DNA of 7,939 bases from Candidatus Desantisiibacteriota bacterium (lineage in GTDB: Bacteria; JACRDZ01): NCBI GenBank assembly GCA_016209155.1, contig JACQWU010000155.1, forward strand, positions 2,318-10,256. Direction: 5' to 3'. The notes under the pieces were generated by a model. The model saw only the letters and a program-made list of their open reading frames with translations. It was not told the DNA's origin and searched no databases. A program made the translations under genes and the position numbers. Of this stretch, positions 501 to 7,939 are shown in pieces. Every line of letters starts with the position of its first letter. Position 1 is the first letter of the stretch.

Positions 501-1657
501 ATGTTTAAAAGAATATTAAACCTTTTAATATATAAAAATTCATTTTTTTTATTTGGCCCAAGGCAGGTAGGCAAGACTTATCTTATAAAACACACCCTTT
601 CACCGGATTTATTCATAGATCTTTTGAAACATAGTGAATTTTTACGCTATTCTAAAGATGTTTCAATTCTATCCCGGGAAATAGAAGCTTTAAAGAAAGA
701 AAAGTGCTGTATTGTCATTGATGAAATTCAACGCTTACCGCAGCTTCTTAACGAAATTCAGCTTATTATGGGAAATAAAAGAGAAGCGCAATTTATTCTT
801 ACCGGATCAAGCGCGCGTAAATTACGAAAGGCAGGAACAAATTTATTAGGAGGGAGAGCAATTACTCTCCATTTGCACCCATTTACTTTTGAAGAATTAG
901 CAGAGGATTTTAATTTGGAAGAGGCCATGCAATTTGGTACTATTCCGAATATCGCGATTGAAAAAGACAGGAAAAATAAAATTCGACTTTTAAAAAGCTA
1001 CGTAGAAACCTATATTAAAGAAGAAATTCAACAGGAGGCATTGACCAGAAATATTCCGGCTTTTGCCAGATTTTTAGAATTAGCCGCGTATGAAACGGGA
1101 ATATTATTAACTTTCAGAATATTGCCAGGGAAGTTGGAATACATTCAAAAACTATCAAAGAGTATTTTTATATTCTGGAAGATACTTTGCTCGGGTTTTT
1201 GCTTTATCCTTACACAAAATCACATAGGACAAAAATCATATCTCATCCAAAATTTTATTTTTTTGATCCTGGAATTGTGGCCGCGCTTCGCGGGGAGCTT
1301 TTTCAGAATTTAGTTTCAGGGACGTCACCGTATAGAATGATTTTTGAGCATTGGATATTTCTAGAAATAAAGAGAATGCTTGATTATTATGAAAAAGAAG
1401 CAAAAATGAGTTTTTTTAGAACATCAGACGGCGCTGAAGTAGATCTGATTTTAGAGATTGAGGGTAAAGTCTGGGCTGTTGAAATAAAGTCATCTAAAGA
1501 GCCGCAACTAAGCGATGTAAGAGGTTTAAGGAGCTTCTTAAAAGATCATAAATATGACAGGGCAATTTGTGTATGCCAGACACCGCGTTCATATGTGAAT
1601 GATAATATTGAATTTCTTCCATGGAGAAACTTTATACATCAGTTAAAAGCTAAATAA
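501..1657 (+). pseudogene. AAA (AAA_14) ATPase with DUF4143 C-terminal domain, split by a 1-nt frameshift
   Basis: Read across the frameshift this gives about 385 residues, normal for the AAA_14/DUF4143 family. Visible parts are Walker A GPRQVGKT (residues 19-26), Walker B VIDE followed by IQRLP (72-79), a sensor-like LTGSSAR (100-106), and a C-terminal PD-(D/E)XK-like core with GAEVDLIL and WAVEIKSS. The first frame (501-1313) is collinear with the family up to ETGILL at about 1107. Sense then continues in the frame one base back, with NFQNIAREVGIHSKTIKEYF from 1109, through FYFFDPGIVAALRGE to the stop at 1657. In the second frame alone, a naive start at 1187 would miss this joining stretch. 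These proteins are common in accessory regions and their substrate is not known. The short direct start MFKRILNL matches the family's usual N-terminus, so ATG 501 is chosen even though no ribosome binding site precedes it. It is either a pseudogene or a sequence error. Confidence 0.88.
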
Positions 1658-1741: not shown

Positions 1742-1909
1742 ATGGATTTTAAAGAGTTGTTTGAAAAATATCAGTCATTACTGTCAGAAAACAATAGTTT
1801 GAAAGAAGAAATAAAAAGCTTAAAAACTCAACTGAGTATTGTAGATCCGCATATTATTCCTGATGAAATTTCTGAGCATGAATTTGCACTGACACTATTT
1901 GAACAATAA
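1742..1909 (+). CDS. Coiled-coil N-terminal segment of the TOTE-type primase-helicase, cut off by an in-frame TAA
   Basis: A 55-residue frame begins MDFKELFEKYQSLLSENNSL. Leucines at residues 6, 13, 20 and 27, with Ile24 and Leu31, form a leucine-zipper-like coiled coil, followed by a proline-containing linker ending in FALTLFEQ. It ends at TAA 1907-1909. It is in the same frame as the large downstream gene, and the 23 codons between the TAA and ATG 1979 (SADKILPSSINNKSDSAEKI, then KLF) are open and read directly into MTLFKGRNDVYAKRW. This is therefore best taken as the severed N-terminus of one gene (1742-4669) and not as an independent small protein. N-terminal coiled coils are frequent in this kind of primase-helicase and probably mediate oligomerisation. 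A free 55-residue peptide could still be made, since its ribosome binding site is good. Confidence 0.72.
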   Translation: MDFKELFEKYQSLLSENNSLKEEIKSLKTQLSIVDPHIIPDEISEHEFALTLFEQ

Positions 1910-1978
1910 TCCGCAGATAAAATTTTACCATCAAGCATTAATAATAAGTCAGATTCCGCAGAAAAAATTAAATTATTT

Positions 1979-4669
1979 ATGACGCTATTTAAAGGACGAA
2001 ATGATGTTTATGCTAAAAGGTGGGAAAACACAAAGAAAGGAACCTCTGGTTATTCACCGTTCTGTTTGAATGAGTGGAAATCCGGATTATGCGGGAAACC
2101 ACAAAAAAGATGTACCGATTGCGCTAATAAATTATATGCCGGATTGGATGAAAAGGTTATAGATGCCCATTTACGAGGGATTAATAATTTTGTTGCTGGA
2201 ATATATCCATTGTGCCTTGATGAAACTTGTTACTTTTTAGCTATTGATTTTGATGGTGAAGAGTGGCAAAAAGATATTCAAGTATTAAGAGAAGTATGCA
2301 TGGAATTCAATATCTCAGTGGCTGTTGAACGCTCACGTTCCGGTAAAGGATCTCATGTATGGTTTTTCTTTGAAAATTCGATATCCGCGCTACTGGCAAG
2401 AAAATTAGGAAGCGCGTTACTTACATACTCTATGAATCGAAGGCACGAAATAACCTTTAAATCTTATGACAGACTTTTCCCTAATCAGGACACCATGCCA
2501 AAGGGCGGTTTAGGAAATTTGATTGCTTTGCCATTGCAAAAGTTTGCAAGGAATAATAAAAATAGCGTTTTTATTGATGATAATTTTGAACCCTTTAACG
2601 ATCAGTGGACATTTTTAGCAAATATTAAAAAACTTTCTGAACATGATGTTGTAGTACTTATTTCAAAACTTTGTCATGGAAATGAACTTGGAGTATTGAA
2701 AAAAGACGATGAAGAAGCTCAAAAACCATGGGAAACAAGCAAAATAAAATTACTAAAAAACGATTTCCCGCAGGATGTTGAAATTGTAAAAGCAAATATG
2801 TTGTTTGTCCCAAAAAAAGACATTTCTCAAAGAGCATTAAATCATTTAAAACGTTTAGCGGCTTTCAATAATCCGGAATTTTATAAAAAACAAGCTATGC
2901 GAATGACGGTTAATAAAATTCCAAGGATCATATCATGTTCTGATGAAACTGCGGAATACCTTTACCTGCCAAGAGGATGTGAGACTGATTTAAAAGCTGT
3001 ATTTGAAGAAAACGGGATTAATGTTCATTTAATAGACAAGACTAATTGTGGTAAAAAAATTGATGTTGAGTTTAACGGCAGTTTAAGAGATGAACAACCT
3101 ATCGCAATCGATAAATTGCTTAAGCATGATATCGGGGTACTTTCAGGAACAACAGCTTTTGGAAAAACAATTGTTGCAATTAAGTTGATTGCTGAAAGAA
3201 AAGTAAATACACTTATTTTGGTTAATAAAATCAGTTTAGTTGCACAGTGGAAAAAAAGATTGATGGAATTTTTGATTATTAATGAAGCTTTCCCGGATAT
3301 AAATATAAATGATGAAAAAAAGCGAGGAAAAAAGAAGGACAGAAGTATTATCGGGCAATTAGGAGCAGGGAAGGAAAGTTTAAATGGAATTATTGATATT
3401 GCTATAATGCAATCATTAAACAGAATGGGTGAAGTAAAGGAATTGGTTAAAAATTATGGCATGATTATTGTTGATGAATGCCATCATGTTTCAGCTTTTA
3501 GCTTTGAAAATGTGCTTAAAAATACAACCGCAAAATACATTTATGGATTAACTGCAACACCAAACAGAAAGGATGGACATCATCCAATCATATTTATGCA
3601 ATGCGGGCCTGTACGATTTAGAGATGATGCAAAAAAGCAGGCAGAAAAAAGACCTTTTGAACATTTTATTATCCCAAGATTCACATCTCTTAAAGTGCCA
3701 ATAGATAAAAATGAAAAAGATATATCTATTCAAGAACTATACTCTGAAATTGTTGTTAATGAAATGAGAAATCAGCTTATTACGGATGATGTATTTAAAA
3801 GTTTTGAAAGCGGCAGAAACTGTGTTATTTTAACTGAGAGAACTGCTCATGTTGAATTGCTTGCGAAAAAATTGAGAGAGAGAATCCCTGATGTGATATC
3901 TTTAACAGGTGGAATGGGCATGAAGGAAACCAGGGAAATATTCGCAAGGATATCTGAAACTCCAACTGATAAACAATTAACATTGGTTGCCACAGGGAAA
4001 TACATTGGTGAAGGCTTTGATGAACCGCGTCTTGATACTTTATTTTTAGCTATGCCGATATCATGGAAAGGCACTTTACAGCAATATGCAGGCCGGCTTC
4101 ATAGATTATTTGAAAACAAAGATGAAGTGCAAATATATGATTATGTTGATATCCATGTTAGGATGCTCGAGAAAATGTATGGTAAGAGGCTTTCCGGATA
4201 TGCCTCTATTGGTTATAAAGCTAAAGGAGAAAATATTGATTCAAAAGCAATTGATATTATTTTTGACAAGCAAAGCTTTATGCCGGTTTATAGCAATGAT
4301 ATCATAAATGCTGAAAGAGAAATTTTAATAGTGAGTCCGTTTATTACTAAAAAACGAACGACGCAAATGCTGCAATATTTGAACGTTCCTTTAAGTAAAA
4401 AAGTTAAGGTTATCATTTTGACGAGACCGGCGGATGACTTTAATGAAAAAGCAAATAATGCTTTGCAGGGTACATTAGACTTATTGAAAGGTGCCGGAGT
4501 AAGTTTGGTTTTTAAATCAAACATTCACCAAAAGTTTGCAATAATGGATCAAAGAATTGTATGGTATGGAAGTATCAATCTTTTAAGTTTTGGAAGCGCT
4601 GAAGAAAGCATAATGCGGCTTGATAGTCCCAATATTGCAAATGAACTGATGAAGAGTATAGATGTTTAA
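1979..4669 (+). CDS. TOTE conflict system-type protein: archaeo-eukaryotic primase + SF2 helicase + PLD-like nuclease domain
   Basis: The 896 residues hold three domains. An archaeo-eukaryotic primase domain (about 1-240) starts LFKGRNDVYAKRWE and carries a Cys cluster (C29, C38, C45, C48), the metal-binding DFDG (90-93), SRSGKGSHVWFF with the His of the second motif (119-130), and GNLIALPLQ (179-187). A superfamily 2 helicase (about 365-745) carries LRDEQ, Walker A GTTAFGKT (390-397), DECHH (499-503), GLTATPNR (523-530), GEGFDEPRLDT (677-687) and QQYAGRLHR (701-709). A C-terminal phospholipase-D-like domain (about 765-890) carries one HxK-D-GSxN motif (H850, K852, D857, GSIN 864-867). Families with this order are described as TOTE conflict systems, thought to act against invading DNA. 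The exact activity here is inferred. Every catalytic motif I can recognise is present. The reading frame continues upstream to 1742 past one TAA, so ATG 1979 is a fallback start lacking a Shine-Dalgarno. Expression would need reinitiation, readthrough or a corrected sequence. Confidence 0.92.
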   Translation: MTLFKGRNDVYAKRWENTKKGTSGYSPFCLNEWKSGLCGKPQKRCTDCANKLYAGLDEKVIDAHLRGINNFVAGIYPLCLDETCYFLAIDFDGEEWQKDIQVLREVCMEFNISVAVERSRSGKGSHVWFFFENSISALLARKLGSALLTYSMNRRHEITFKSYDRLFPNQDTMPKGGLGNLIALPLQKFARNNKNSVFIDDNFEPFNDQWTFLANIKKLSEHDVVVLISKLCHGNELGVLKKDDEEAQKPWETSKIKLLKNDFPQDVEIVKANMLFVPKKDISQRALNHLKRLAAFNNPEFYKKQAMRMTVNKIPRIISCSDETAEYLYLPRGCETDLKAVFEENGINVHLIDKTNCGKKIDVEFNGSLRDEQPIAIDKLLKHDIGVLSGTTAFGKTIVAIKLIAERKVNTLILVNKISLVAQWKKRLMEFLIINEAFPDININDEKKRGKKKDRSIIGQLGAGKESLNGIIDIAIMQSLNRMGEVKELVKNYGMIIVDECHHVSAFSFENVLKNTTAKYIYGLTATPNRKDGHHPIIFMQCGPVRFRDDAKKQAEKRPFEHFIIPRFTSLKVPIDKNEKDISIQELYSEIVVNEMRNQLITDDVFKSFESGRNCVILTERTAHVELLAKKLRERIPDVISLTGGMGMKETREIFARISETPTDKQLTLVATGKYIGEGFDEPRLDTLFLAMPISWKGTLQQYAGRLHRLFENKDEVQIYDYVDIHVRMLEKMYGKRLSGYASIGYKAKGENIDSKAIDIIFDKQSFMPVYSNDIINAEREILIVSPFITKKRTTQMLQYLNVPLSKKVKVIILTRPADDFNEKANNALQGTLDLLKGAGVSLVFKSNIHQKFAIMDQRIVWYGSINLLSFGSAEESIMRLDSPNIANELMKSIDV

Positions 4670-4839
4670 GCAGAGGTTGACATATTTATGAAAATGGAAG
4701 TATTAATAAAAAAATTCGGCAAACTGCTTCTTCTGAAAATGAAGCGCTTATAGATAAGATTACCGAAGGGACTAACAGTCAAAACCCGATTTTCGAACGA
4801 GACCTGAAAGCAAATCATGAAGTCCAACTGATGGTATAG
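4670..4839 (+). pseudogene. Fragment of an AIPR-like abortive infection protein, frameshifted
   Basis: Immediately after the primase-helicase stop, one frame gives AEVDIFMKMEVLIK (4670-4711). After a run of seven A's (4708-4714) the frame one base back continues IRQTASSENEALIDKITEGT, then NSQNPIFERDLKANHEVQ, ending at TAG 4837-4839. The joined text resembles the AIPR family (abortive infection phage resistance), where a strand ending in a V-I-E/Q-T-like stretch is followed by LI-KI--ATNSQNPI--RDL-AN-E-Q. Only about 55 residues of a protein several hundred residues long remain. Both the N-terminal bulk and the C-terminus are missing. The homopolymer slip is a classic indel site. Assignment rests on recalled family text and was not searched. 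Confidence 0.5.
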
Positions 4840-4851
4840 GTATTATACAGA

Positions 4852-5145
4852 TTGGAAAAATGGGGATGTTTTTTACATCATTCGGAACTTGCATTGGTAT
4901 ATCTTATTGGCTGGATTTGTCCGGAGATAAAAGAAGATCCTGCAATCATAAGAAGCGATGAGCACCTGATGAAGGTTTTATCTCGAACAAATCGTACTAA
5001 GTTCAGGAACCAAGTCCTTAATCCGCTTATAGAAATAAATTTTATTGAAATGACCATTCCTGATAAACCTCAAAGCAGTAAGCAGAAATACCGGCTGACT
5101 GAAAAAGGGAAAGAGCATTTGAAATTGCTGGAGAAAAATATGTAG
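4852..5145 (+). CDS. Winged-helix C-terminal domain of a Fic-like or AlbA_2/RecG-like ATP-binding protein, detached
   Basis: The 97 residues contain TNRTKFRNQVLNPLIEINFI, EMTIPDKPQSSKQKYRLTEKG and a Lys/Glu-rich end. This NPL-E---IEMTIPDKP-S--QKYRLT signature closes many Fic proteins and AlbA_2 (Schlafen-like) putative transcriptional regulators or RecG-like ATP-binding proteins, where it forms a winged helix. No ATP-binding, Fic or AlbA_2 domain is present upstream. The frame is closed by the TAG at 4837-4839. The only start is TTG 4852, without a clear ribosome binding site. The first 25 residues (including HHSELALVYLIGWICPEI) are not recognisable. It is most likely the leftover 3' end of a larger gene, possibly not translated. 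Confidence 0.6.
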   Translation: MEKWGCFLHHSELALVYLIGWICPEIKEDPAIIRSDEHLMKVLSRTNRTKFRNQVLNPLIEINFIEMTIPDKPQSSKQKYRLTEKGKEHLKLLEKNM

Positions 5146-5303: not shown

Positions 5304-5329
5304 GTAGGGGCAGGTTCCCATGCCTGCCC
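5304..5329. repeat. 26-nt hairpin repeat, copy 1
   Basis: GTAGGGGCAGG then TTCCCATGCCTGCCC. The arms GGGCAGG (5308-5314) and CCTGCCC (5323-5329) pair perfectly around an 8-nt loop. It is identical over 26 nt to 6490-6515 and strikingly GC-rich against its AT-rich surroundings. This copy is followed by TTTTT, so it could also act as a rho-independent terminator on the plus strand. It resembles dispersed REP-like elements. The family is not identified. Confidence 0.85.
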
Positions 5330-5773: not shown

Positions 5774-6022
5774 ATGATAAAAACAGTGGAAGCAATTTAT
5801 AAAAATAAGCAGTTCATTATCGGGAAAAAGAGAGAATATCCCAAAGACGGCAGTAATGTTTTGATAATATTCGAGACTAATAAAAAAGAGAAAGACAGTA
5901 CAAAAAGAATAGAAAATAAATCTTTATATGGTATTTGGTCAAAAAAAATTCCTCCAACCATTAATATTGAAAGTAAACTTCGTGAAATTAGGTTAGGCTG
6001 GAAAAAACATTTGGAAAATTAA
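5774..6022 (+). CDS. Antitoxin of a VapBC-like pair (DUF104/AF2212-like N-terminus)
   Basis: The 82-residue product starts MIKTVEAIYKNKQFIIGKKR, resembling the DUF104/AF2212-like antitoxins that open with a KTVEAIYE-G strand and a short beta barrel with VLIIFE. The C-terminal half (SLYGIWSKKIPPTINIESKL followed by REIRLGWKKHLEN) looks like the helix that wraps around a PIN toxin. Its stop codon (6020-6022) directly abuts the toxin ATG at 6023, so the two are translationally coupled. The start is fixed by the strong GGAGG at 5763-5767. It presumably neutralises the adjacent PIN-domain RNase. The frame is intact even though the partner toxin is frameshifted. Confidence 0.78.
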   Translation: MIKTVEAIYKNKQFIIGKKREYPKDGSNVLIIFETNKKEKDSTKRIENKSLYGIWSKKIPPTINIESKLREIRLGWKKHLEN

Positions 6023-6411
6023 ATGGCCGAAAAATATATTTTAGATACACATACCTTGTTTTGGTATTTGACAGCTTCTCCTAAATTAAGCCGCAAAGCA
6101 AAAGATATTATTGAAAAGGTTTTAACATCAGGAGAGAAGGTTGTTATCTCCGTAATTACTTTAGCTGAATTGTATTATCTAAATGAAAAAATCGGAAAAC
6201 CGCTTGATTTTTTTTCTGAGTATAAAAAACTTGAAGAAAATTTAGAGATTGCTCCAATTGAAACGACTGATATTTTATCTTTTGTGAATTGGATGAGATT
6301 GAAGAAATGCATGATCGTTTAATTGTAGGACTTGTTTTAAAAATGGATGGAATATTAATCACAAAGGATGAAGTAATACGAGCTAGCAAAAAAATAAAAG
6401 TTTTATGGTGA
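6023..6411 (+). pseudogene. VapC-like PIN-domain toxin, disrupted by a 1-nt frameshift
   Basis: The first frame opens MAEKYILDTHTLFWYLTASP with the first PIN acidic residue at D8 and the second at E49 (TLAELYYL). It reads to DILSF at about 6283, then goes astray and stops at 6322. One base back, the sense resumes as ELDEIEEMHDRLIVGLVLKM, then DGILITKDEVIRASKKIKVL, to the TGA at 6409-6411. That segment carries the other two conserved acidic positions, the Asp of MHDRL (6313-6315) and of TKDE (6367-6369). The joined length of about 129 residues is exactly normal for VapC RNases. The break at about 6283-6291 separates the two halves of the active site, so the toxin should be dead if the lesion is real. 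No ribosome binding site is needed, since the ATG abuts the antitoxin stop. Confidence 0.87.
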
Positions 6412-6489
6412 TTATGCAGTTGAAATTGTTATAGCGTATTTTTAATTTGGCATAGTTTTATATTATTCAACAATTTGAATGTAAATTTG

Positions 6490-6515
6490 GTAGGGGCAGG
6501 TTCCCATGCCTGCCC
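6490..6515. repeat. 26-nt hairpin repeat, copy 2
   Basis: Same orientation and identical over 26 nt to 5304-5329. The arms are GGGCAGG (6494-6500) and CCTGCCC (6509-6515), with an 8-nt loop. It follows the toxin gene by 78 nt and is followed by ATTTTTATTT, so it could end the toxin-antitoxin transcript. No further copy was seen in the window. Confidence 0.85.
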
Positions 6516-6581
6516 ATTTTTATTTATAATTTTAATGATAAAAAGAATAATATAATTAAATATCCGGACACATTCAAATAA

Positions 6582-7939
6582 AGAAATCTCTCATATAGGA
6601 ACGACCGAGGAATCTTGCAGAAAGTTCTGCTAAATTTTCAGGGATCGATATATTTTGAATATTCTATTCCGCGAATGGGGAAACGAATTGATGTTGTAAT
6701 TATTATTGGATCTGCGATTTTTGTCTTAGAATTTAAAGTAGGCGAAAAAGAATTTTTATCATATGCTATTGATCAGGTTTGGGATTATGCTTTGGATTTA
6801 AAGAACTTTCACGAAACAAGTCATGAACATTTTATTGCTCCTATACTTATTGCCACTAAGGCAAAAAACGTTACTTCATTTGTTGCAGCAACACCACAAA
6901 ACGACAAATTGCTTTTTCCTATTAAGTGTAACGTGGAATTACTCAGTCAAGCAATCAAAGATGTATTGTTTTTTGCAGAAGGGGCTATAATTGATCCAAT
7001 ACAATGGGACAGAGGGCGGTATTCCCCAACTCCAACAATCGTCGAAGCAGCAATGGCACTCTACAATGGCCACTCAGTTAGTGAAATTTCGCGCAGTGGT
7101 GATAGCGCAATCAACTTAAGTGAAACATCTGATACAATATCAAAAATTATTCGTTTTTCAAAAAATAAATCGCATAAATCAATCTGTTTTGTAACAGGTG
7201 TACCGGGTGCCGGAAAAACATTGGTCGGACTTAATATTGCAACCAAGCATATTGATAAATCTAACGACCTTTACAGCGTTTTTCTTTCTGGTAATGGGCC
7301 ACTTGTTGCTATCTTACGGGAGGCTTTAGCTAGGGATAAGGTACGGCATGAAAAAGAGCGTGGGATTAAGGTTAAAAAAAGCGAAGCAATGAGTGATGTT
7401 AAGATGTTTATTCAAAATGTTCATAATTTTCGTGATGAATGTCTAGTTGATTGCGAAAAACCACCAATTGAGCATGTGGCATTATTTGATGAAGCACAGC
7501 GTGCTTGGAATCTGCAACAGACAGCATATTTCATGCATCGGAAAAAGAATAGACAAAATTTTAATCAGTCTGAACCTGAATTTTTAGTTTCATGTCTTAA
7601 TCGTCATTCGGATTGGGCGGTAGTTGTTTGTCTGGTTGGTGGAGGTCAAGAGATTAACACGGGGGAGGCTGGAATTAGCGAATGGATAGAAGCCTTAAAT
7701 CGCTCATTCCCAGACTGGCATATTTATATATCTTCTCGACTTACTGATAGTGAATATGGAGCGGGAAAAATATTAGATGAATTAAAATTACGACCAAATG
7801 TTGTAAAAAAAGATGAACTGCATCTTGCTGTTTCGATGCGTTCGTTTCGTGCTGAAAATGTTTCATTATTGGTAAAGCAGTTACTTGATCTTAATGTAGA
7901 TGAGGCGCACAATACCTTGGCAAATGTGTCTAAGAAATA
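6582..7939 (+). CDS. DUF2075 (Schlafen-like) P-loop helicase/ATPase with a PD-(D/E)XK-like N-terminal motif; 5' end missing, runs off the right edge
   Basis: An open frame runs from 6582 (after TAA 6579-6581) to the window end, 452 codons, without any good start. Readable domain text begins around 6612 ([11 protein letters not shown], then [19 protein letters not shown]) and includes VLEFKVGE, a D...ExK nuclease-like motif (Asp 6690-6692, Glu 6729-6731, Lys 6735-6737). Walker A GVPGAGKT is at 7197-7220 and Walker [11 protein letters not shown] at 7479-7508, both typical of DUF2075 proteins. Family members normally carry roughly 50 more residues before this point, so the gene is probably truncated at its 5' end. 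Possible substitute starts are TTG 6615 (with GAGGA at 6607-6611, a tight 3-nt spacer) and ATG 6675. The latter would lose part of the fold. The family occurs in phage defence and mobile-element contexts. A nucleic-acid helicase or translocase role is inferred. Its sequence is visibly less AT-rich than the fragments to its left. Confidence 0.87.

What the first reader, a model, noticed from the sequence alone, without database searches (positions are those of the whole stretch)
1742..4669. TOTE-type primase-helicase-PLD gene interrupted by a single in-frame TAA after its coiled coil
From 1742 to 4669 (976 codons) the only interruption is TAA at 1907-1909. The flanking text is collinear and in the same frame, a good ribosome binding site lies only at 1742, and the enzymatic domains begin just after ATG 1979. 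Either this is a nonsense mutation that unlinks the oligomerisation domain, a sequence error, or a natural split into a small coiled-coil peptide plus a catalytic protein. Having intact AEP, DEXH and HKD motifs in one polypeptide makes it the most interesting enzyme in the window.
Basis: partly seen in the sequence, partly recalled or inferred. Interest (0 to 1): 0.65.

Follow-up and report, generated by a model that had tools for sequence, protein, structure and literature searches.

The report
Broken primase-helicase-nuclease defence gene
This is an ordinary member of a widespread bacterial conflict-gene family (leucine zipper, primase, helicase and nuclease in one protein) whose copy here carries one premature stop between the zipper and the enzyme, most likely a recent mutation or a sequence error rather than a new split-gene design.

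Summary
Window 1742-4669 is one collinear frame, interrupted only by TAA 1907-1909. The frame encodes a 31-residue leucine zipper, a disordered linker holding the TAA, an AEP/Prim-Pol domain, an XPB-like helicase and a single-HKD PLD nuclease.

About 65 public homologues (43-73% identical, many phyla) have the same architecture in one unbroken frame. Sixty-five relatives reach the stop's column: 54 have a sense codon, 11 a gap, none a stop. ATG 1979 is an internal methionine of the first AEP helix, without a ribosome site. The natural-split idea therefore fails.

What remains is a recent nonsense mutation (about 0.6) or a sequence/assembly error (about 0.33). The catalytic part shows no sign of decay: no second lesion in 919 codons, shorter tree branch than its sisters. 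For mutation: neighbouring genes are frameshifted or truncated, and about 7% of public copies are broken. For error: the MAG has assembly faults even in rpoB. However, 0 in-frame stops occurred in 13,989 conserved codons.

The family is already named (Pfam AEP-TOTE; architecture like type 3 CAPP_A, "CAPP-Helicase"). Side observation: these genes often lie just downstream of varied toxin or restriction genes.

The parts
1742..1906 (+). N-terminal part of the gene upstream of the stop: leucine zipper (codons 1-31) plus start of the disordered linker; 55 codons
   Evidence: ORF. Heptad pattern conserved in the family: Leu at residues 6, 13, 20, 27 and F/Y, Y, N, N/I, L at 3, 10, 17, 24, 31. Helix 3-30 with pLDDT 83-93 in the intact homologue.
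1907..1909 (+). premature in-frame TAA (codon 56), in the variable disordered linker
   Evidence: equivalent to residue 58 of homologue L055, inside its pLDDT<50 segment 34-67; no stop in 65 relatives aligned there
1910..1957 (+). remainder of linker, same frame, no ATG/GTG/TTG start codon
   Evidence: sequence; continuous alignment with relatives
1958..2650 (+). AEP / Prim-Pol domain (Pfam AEP-TOTE PF22548) with four-Cys cluster; ATG 1979 lies inside its first helix
   Evidence: hmmscan E 4e-100; fold match to CAPP Prim-Pol 7nqd Z 24.9, rmsd 2.5 over 203 residues, on the homologue's model
3078..4230 (+). SF2 helicase/translocase core, XPB-like (ResIII + Helicase_C)
   Evidence: XPB 6p4f Z 23.3; SauUSI 7clg Z 17.7
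4298..4666 (+). C-terminal PLD nuclease domain with a single HKD motif (H-x-K-x4-D at 4526)
   Evidence: PLDc_2 E 1.7e-10; motif
501..1657 (+). upstream AAA_14/DUF4143 ATPase gene, frameshifted between about 1040 and 1115 (frame +3 to +2)
   Evidence: intact paralogues of 383 and 390 aa in the same genome align in two frames
4684..5145 (+). remnant of a Fic-like gene: C-terminal wing domain only, no Fic domain upstream
   Evidence: Fic-like_C PF21247 E 7.5e-16 on 4852-5145
6023..6411 (+). PIN-domain toxin gene, frameshifted near 6290; small partner ORF at 5774-6022
   Evidence: PIN E 1.3e-8 on 6023-6322; sequence continues in another frame (read by eye)

Best explanation
The locus is a normal single-chain gene of the AEP-TOTE / Prim-Pol-helicase-PLD conflict family with a recent nonsense mutation in its variable linker, in a strain whose conflict island is decaying. 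Intended working (inferred from domains): the N-terminal leucine zipper with Asn in the core pairs two chains. That brings two single-HKD PLD half-sites together into one nuclease. The XPB-like motor moves along or opens duplex DNA, and the Prim-Pol domain binds single-stranded template and primes or fills in. Together they would process foreign or mobile DNA. With the TAA, translation from 1742 yields only a 55-residue zipper peptide. Any product restarted at ATG 1979 lacks the zipper and most of the first AEP helix, and would be poorly made because it has no ribosome site. The copy is therefore predicted to be inactive. Shown here: architecture, stop, conservation in relatives, motif integrity. 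Inferred: dimerisation, activity and loss of function.
For: (1) About 65 full-length homologues are unbroken, and none of the relatives aligned at residue 56 has a stop. (2) The downstream 919 codons are otherwise intact and keep all invariant positions of the family, and the window's tree branch (0.16) is shorter than its sisters' (0.24, 0.28), so the lesion is recent. (3) Neighbouring genes are also damaged: frameshifted AAA_14/DUF4143, Fic remnant, frameshifted PIN. The contig's coding density is 0.69 against 0.86 on average. (4) Broken copies occur elsewhere in the family: L077, L079, L095, L121 and L134 of roughly 70 PLD-type copies, including an isolate genome, Pseudobacteroides cellulosolvens. 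(5) In this MAG, conserved genes showed 0 in-frame stops in 13,989 codons, so substitution-type stops are not a common error here. (6) TAA is the main stop codon of this genome, 160 of 262, so it is not reassigned.
Against: The MAG contains assembly faults in genes that must work: rpoB is frameshifted by a short deletion-type join, and 3 of 31 conserved genes show frame switches. So the neighbouring frameshifts, and possibly the TAA, could be artefacts. No reads were available. The lack of any second lesion also fits an error.
Confidence: 0.6

Rival explanations
1. The TAA is a base-calling, consensus or assembly error in the MAG; the real gene is intact and the enzyme functional.
For: Catalytic part shows no decay. 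The MAG is 78.8% complete in 352 contigs, has short N-gaps including one directly before the window, and has misjoins in rpoB and other conserved genes.
Against: The MAG's demonstrated faults are deletion-type frame changes; no in-frame stop was seen in 13,989 conserved codons. The flanks of the TAA are perfectly collinear with relatives.
Confidence: 0.33
2. Natural split: a separate zipper peptide (1742-1909) and a catalytic protein (from ATG 1979) work as two chains.
For: Both ORFs are open and the stop sits exactly in the disordered linker, where a break would do the least structural damage. Some more distant relatives without the PLD domain lack the coiled coil altogether (L124, L131, L133, L139).
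Against: No stop in the 65 relatives aligned there. ATG 1979 matches an internal residue (Met in 31 of 89 relatives, otherwise mostly Arg) and removes near-invariant residues of the first AEP helix. No ribosome binding site before 1979, and no start codon between 1910 and 1978.
Confidence: 0.04
3. Programmed read-through or recoding of the TAA.
For: The frame is kept on both sides.
Against: The stop is not conserved in any relative, TAA is the genome's main stop and is absent from conserved frames, and the following base is T, usually a strong termination context (general knowledge).
Confidence: 0.03

Closest known systems
Full-length AEP-TOTE homologues, e.g. L055 (JAAYUV010000060.1, Peptococcaceae MAG), L060, L056
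   Same: Same domain order, 69-71% identity over the whole read-through protein, same zipper at a similar distance from the AEP domain.
   Different: Their frame is unbroken.
CAPP_A type 3 'CAPP-Helicase' and the non-CRISPR helicase-fused Prim-Pols (Zabrady et al. 2021, PMC8211822)
   Same: [quoted passage not shown] the paper says non-CRISPR members of this architecture are the most prevalent and that non-CRISPR homologues typically sit in mobile elements. Fold match of the AEP part to the CAPP Prim-Pol structures, Z 24.9.
   Different: No CRISPR or cas gene seen on this contig; an extra C-terminal PLD domain and an N-terminal zipper that the passages read do not mention.
SauUSI (7clg), ATP-dependent restriction endonuclease, PADLOC mREase_IV
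   Same: PLD-type nuclease joined to an SF2 motor in one chain; helicase part aligns at Z 17.7, PADLOC mREase_IV E 8e-13 on the helicase.
   Different: SauUSI has its PLD domain at the other end and a methyl-cytosine reader instead of an AEP domain (general knowledge).
XPB / archaeal XPBII helicase
   Same: Helicase core fold and sequence.
   Different: Repair/transcription helicase; no AEP or PLD domain.

Membership tests
AEP-TOTE family (Pfam PF22548) with helicase and PLD | AEP-TOTE domain above the curated cut-off | tested here: met
   334.5 bits against a cut-off of 27
AEP-TOTE family (Pfam PF22548) with helicase and PLD | AEP catalytic motifs DxD and (S)xH | tested here: met
   FLAIDFD at 2234, SGKGSHVW at 2339; both in invariant columns
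AEP-TOTE family (Pfam PF22548) with helicase and PLD | SF2 helicase and C-terminal PLD with HKD motif in the same chain | tested here: met
   the PLD-bearing copies cluster on the tree, and the label-less rows inside are cut or broken copies
AEP-TOTE family (Pfam PF22548) with helicase and PLD | one uninterrupted reading frame including the N-terminal coiled coil | tested here: not met
   TAA 1907-1909. This is a property of intact relatives rather than a defining feature of the family; the copy is read as a disrupted member.
CRISPR-associated Prim-Pol (CAPP) | Prim-Pol fold of the CAPP type | tested here: met
   7nqd Z 24.9, rmsd 2.5, 203 residues, on the intact homologue's model; phmmer E 1.4e-12
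CRISPR-associated Prim-Pol (CAPP) | operonic link to cas1/cas2 and a CRISPR array | tested here: not met
   No cas gene among the ORFs of the 10.3-kb contig, and no recurring cas-like neighbour cluster recognised in the relatives' flanks. Not filed as a CAPP.
SauUSI-like modification-dependent restriction enzyme | N-terminal PLD plus modified-base reader domain | tested here: not met
   PLD is C-terminal and Pfam finds no reader domain; similarity is of working parts only
Natural two-chain (split) version | break conserved in relatives, with a start signal for the second chain | tested here: not met
   no conserved stop; no ribosome site before 1979

The most novel reading that the evidence does not exclude
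The zipper-AEP-helicase-PLD enzyme is a portable partner that attaches itself as the downstream gene of many unrelated conflict genes (AAA_14/DUF4143, AbiEii, Fic, RhuM, HipA, McrC, XhoI, XamI, Schlafen-AlbA, RloB, ParE, PIN). It would act as a shared DNA-processing arm of otherwise different defence or toxin systems.
Probability: 0.2. Interest if true: 0.5.

Novelty: new member of a known kind. Interest (0 to 1): 0.2.

Why it matters
For the finding itself: it removes a tempting but wrong split-gene story and shows how to tell a lesion from a design (many intact relatives, a restart site inside a helix, no decay downstream). For the family: the conserved leucine zipper with buried Asn next to a single-HKD nuclease makes a clear, testable prediction that dimerisation switches the nuclease on. 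The frequent position behind diverse conflict genes is a lead worth a proper statistical study.

Tried and rejected
Natural split gene: rejected. Codon reassignment of TAA: rejected. Second copy in the same genome that might supply the missing part: none, only an unrelated helicase at 27%. Fixed operon partner: none; the upstream gene varies. An apparent AAA_14 pairing is at family level only (28% to L080's gene). Phage origin: the listed phage hits cover only the middle, helicase-bearing part, although some IMG/VR contigs carry family members. Literature under the name TOTE: none in the held library.

Full report
What is in the sequence. The frame from ATG 1742 to TAA 4667-4669 holds 975 codons with one internal stop, TAA 1907-1909. 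The downstream ORF encodes AEP-TOTE, ResIII/Helicase_C and PLDc_2 domains with complete AEP, helicase and HKD motifs and a four-cysteine cluster. The upstream 55 codons score weakly, below the curated cut-offs, against several leucine-zipper and coiled-coil families.

Where the window lies. It is C323:2318-10256 of a MAG with 352 contigs, 78.8% complete, from a thinly sampled phylum (three same-phylum rows). A two-base N-gap lies directly before the window. The contig looks like a conflict island: VapBC-type pairs, a truncated large helicase, an AAA_14/DUF4143 ATPase, a Fic remnant, a PIN toxin and a Schlafen-group-3 helicase related to PADLOC PDC-S41.

Relatives. A genome-contig scan gave 80 loci, most with the whole AEP-helicase-PLD architecture. 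With read-through translation (X at the stop) as query, 65 loci align as a single clean stretch reaching the C-terminus, many from residue 1. Sixty-five alignments span residue 56: 54 have a sense codon, 11 a gap, none a stop. The linker sequence is variable, so no single ancestral residue can be read off. ATG 1979 corresponds to residue 80, which is Met in 31 of 89 relatives and mostly Arg otherwise, so it is an internal position. No relative starts there; even relatives with little or no coiled coil start upstream of this helix.

Structure. The intact homologue L055 (73% over the catalytic part) was folded with 39 relatives, including the window's 1910-4666. It shows a helix at 3-30, a disordered linker at 34-67, and the first AEP helix at 79-89. 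The window's TAA maps to L055 residue 58, and ATG 1979 to Met 87, near the end of that helix. The AEP part matches the CAPP Prim-Pol domain (Z 24.9) and the helicase matches XPB (Z 23-24) and SauUSI (Z 17.7). The zipper has Leu every seventh residue at 6, 13, 20 and 27, with Asn common at core positions 17 and 24. That pattern is typical of parallel dimers (general knowledge). A single HKD motif normally needs two chains to form one active site (general knowledge), hence the proposed role of the zipper.

Is the stop real? For a real mutation: adjacent genes are damaged; contig coding density is 0.69 against 0.86; most AAA_14 paralogues elsewhere in this genome have long open frames; no in-frame stop occurred in 13,989 codons aligned to a same-phylum genome; and broken copies exist in about 5 of 70 relatives, one in an isolate genome. 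For an error: rpoB of this MAG is split by a short deletion-type fault, and 3 of 31 conserved genes show frame switches. Either way the lesion is young: the catalytic part has no second lesion, and the window's branch is shorter than those of its sisters. My weights are 0.6 mutation, 0.33 error, 0.04 split gene, 0.03 recoding.

Known context. Pfam names the domain after the 'TOTE conflict system'; no paper under that name is in the held library. Zabrady et al. 2021 (PMC8211822) describe helicase-fused Prim-Pols as the third CAPP_A type and as the commonest non-CRISPR form, typically in mobile elements. The protein here fits that description and adds a PLD domain; no cas genes were seen on its contig.

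Neighbourhood lead. In 49 of 84 loci a gene lies upstream on the same strand within 150 bp. Of 40 upstream genes scanned, 27 are toxin, restriction or defence types of many unrelated families, against 6 of 20 downstream genes. Fisher p is 0.012, and 0.058 when only same-strand downstream genes are used. The sample was chosen by hand and categories were assigned by me, so this is a lead, not a result.

Verdict. The interesting option (natural split) is rejected. The remaining reading is a recently disrupted, or misread, member of a known family.

Noticed in passing
upstream flanks of L056, L058, L059, L070, L074, L080, L084, L091, L096, L100, L104, L109, L111, L127, L130, L136, L141, L142, L143: The AEP-helicase-PLD gene often lies a few bases downstream of an unrelated conflict gene (RhuM, AbiEii, XamI, Fic, XhoI, AAA_14/DUF4143, Schlafen-AlbA, RloB, HipA, McrC); the upstream partner changes from locus to locus.
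   Followed up: partly
G000:C276 around 2770; L151 around 13838; L158 around 3630; L208 around 11400: rpoB and three other conserved genes of this MAG change frame at short deletion-type joins, which points to recurrent assembly faults in the bin.
   Followed up: partly
window 501-1657: The AAA_14/DUF4143 ATPase upstream is frameshifted between about 1040 and 1115; the genome has 13 matches to this gene, most of them with long open frames.
   Followed up: yes
window 5307-5329 and 6493-6515: Two exact copies of GGGGCAGGTTCCCATGCCTGCCC, an inverted-repeat element found 11 times in the genome allowing two mismatches, against 0 for the reversed control pattern.
   Followed up: partly
L099, L100, L101, L107, L109: Some Oscillospiraceae relatives carry a different, non-coiled-coil N-terminal module in place of the leucine zipper.
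   Followed up: no
L121 (Pseudobacteroides cellulosolvens) 5788-7587: A family member in an isolate genome stops after about 580 family residues, a real broken copy outside MAG data.
   Followed up: no
window 6615-7939: Schlafen-group-3-type helicase with a strong match to PADLOC candidate PDC-S41 (E 6e-180), running off the contig end.
   Followed up: no
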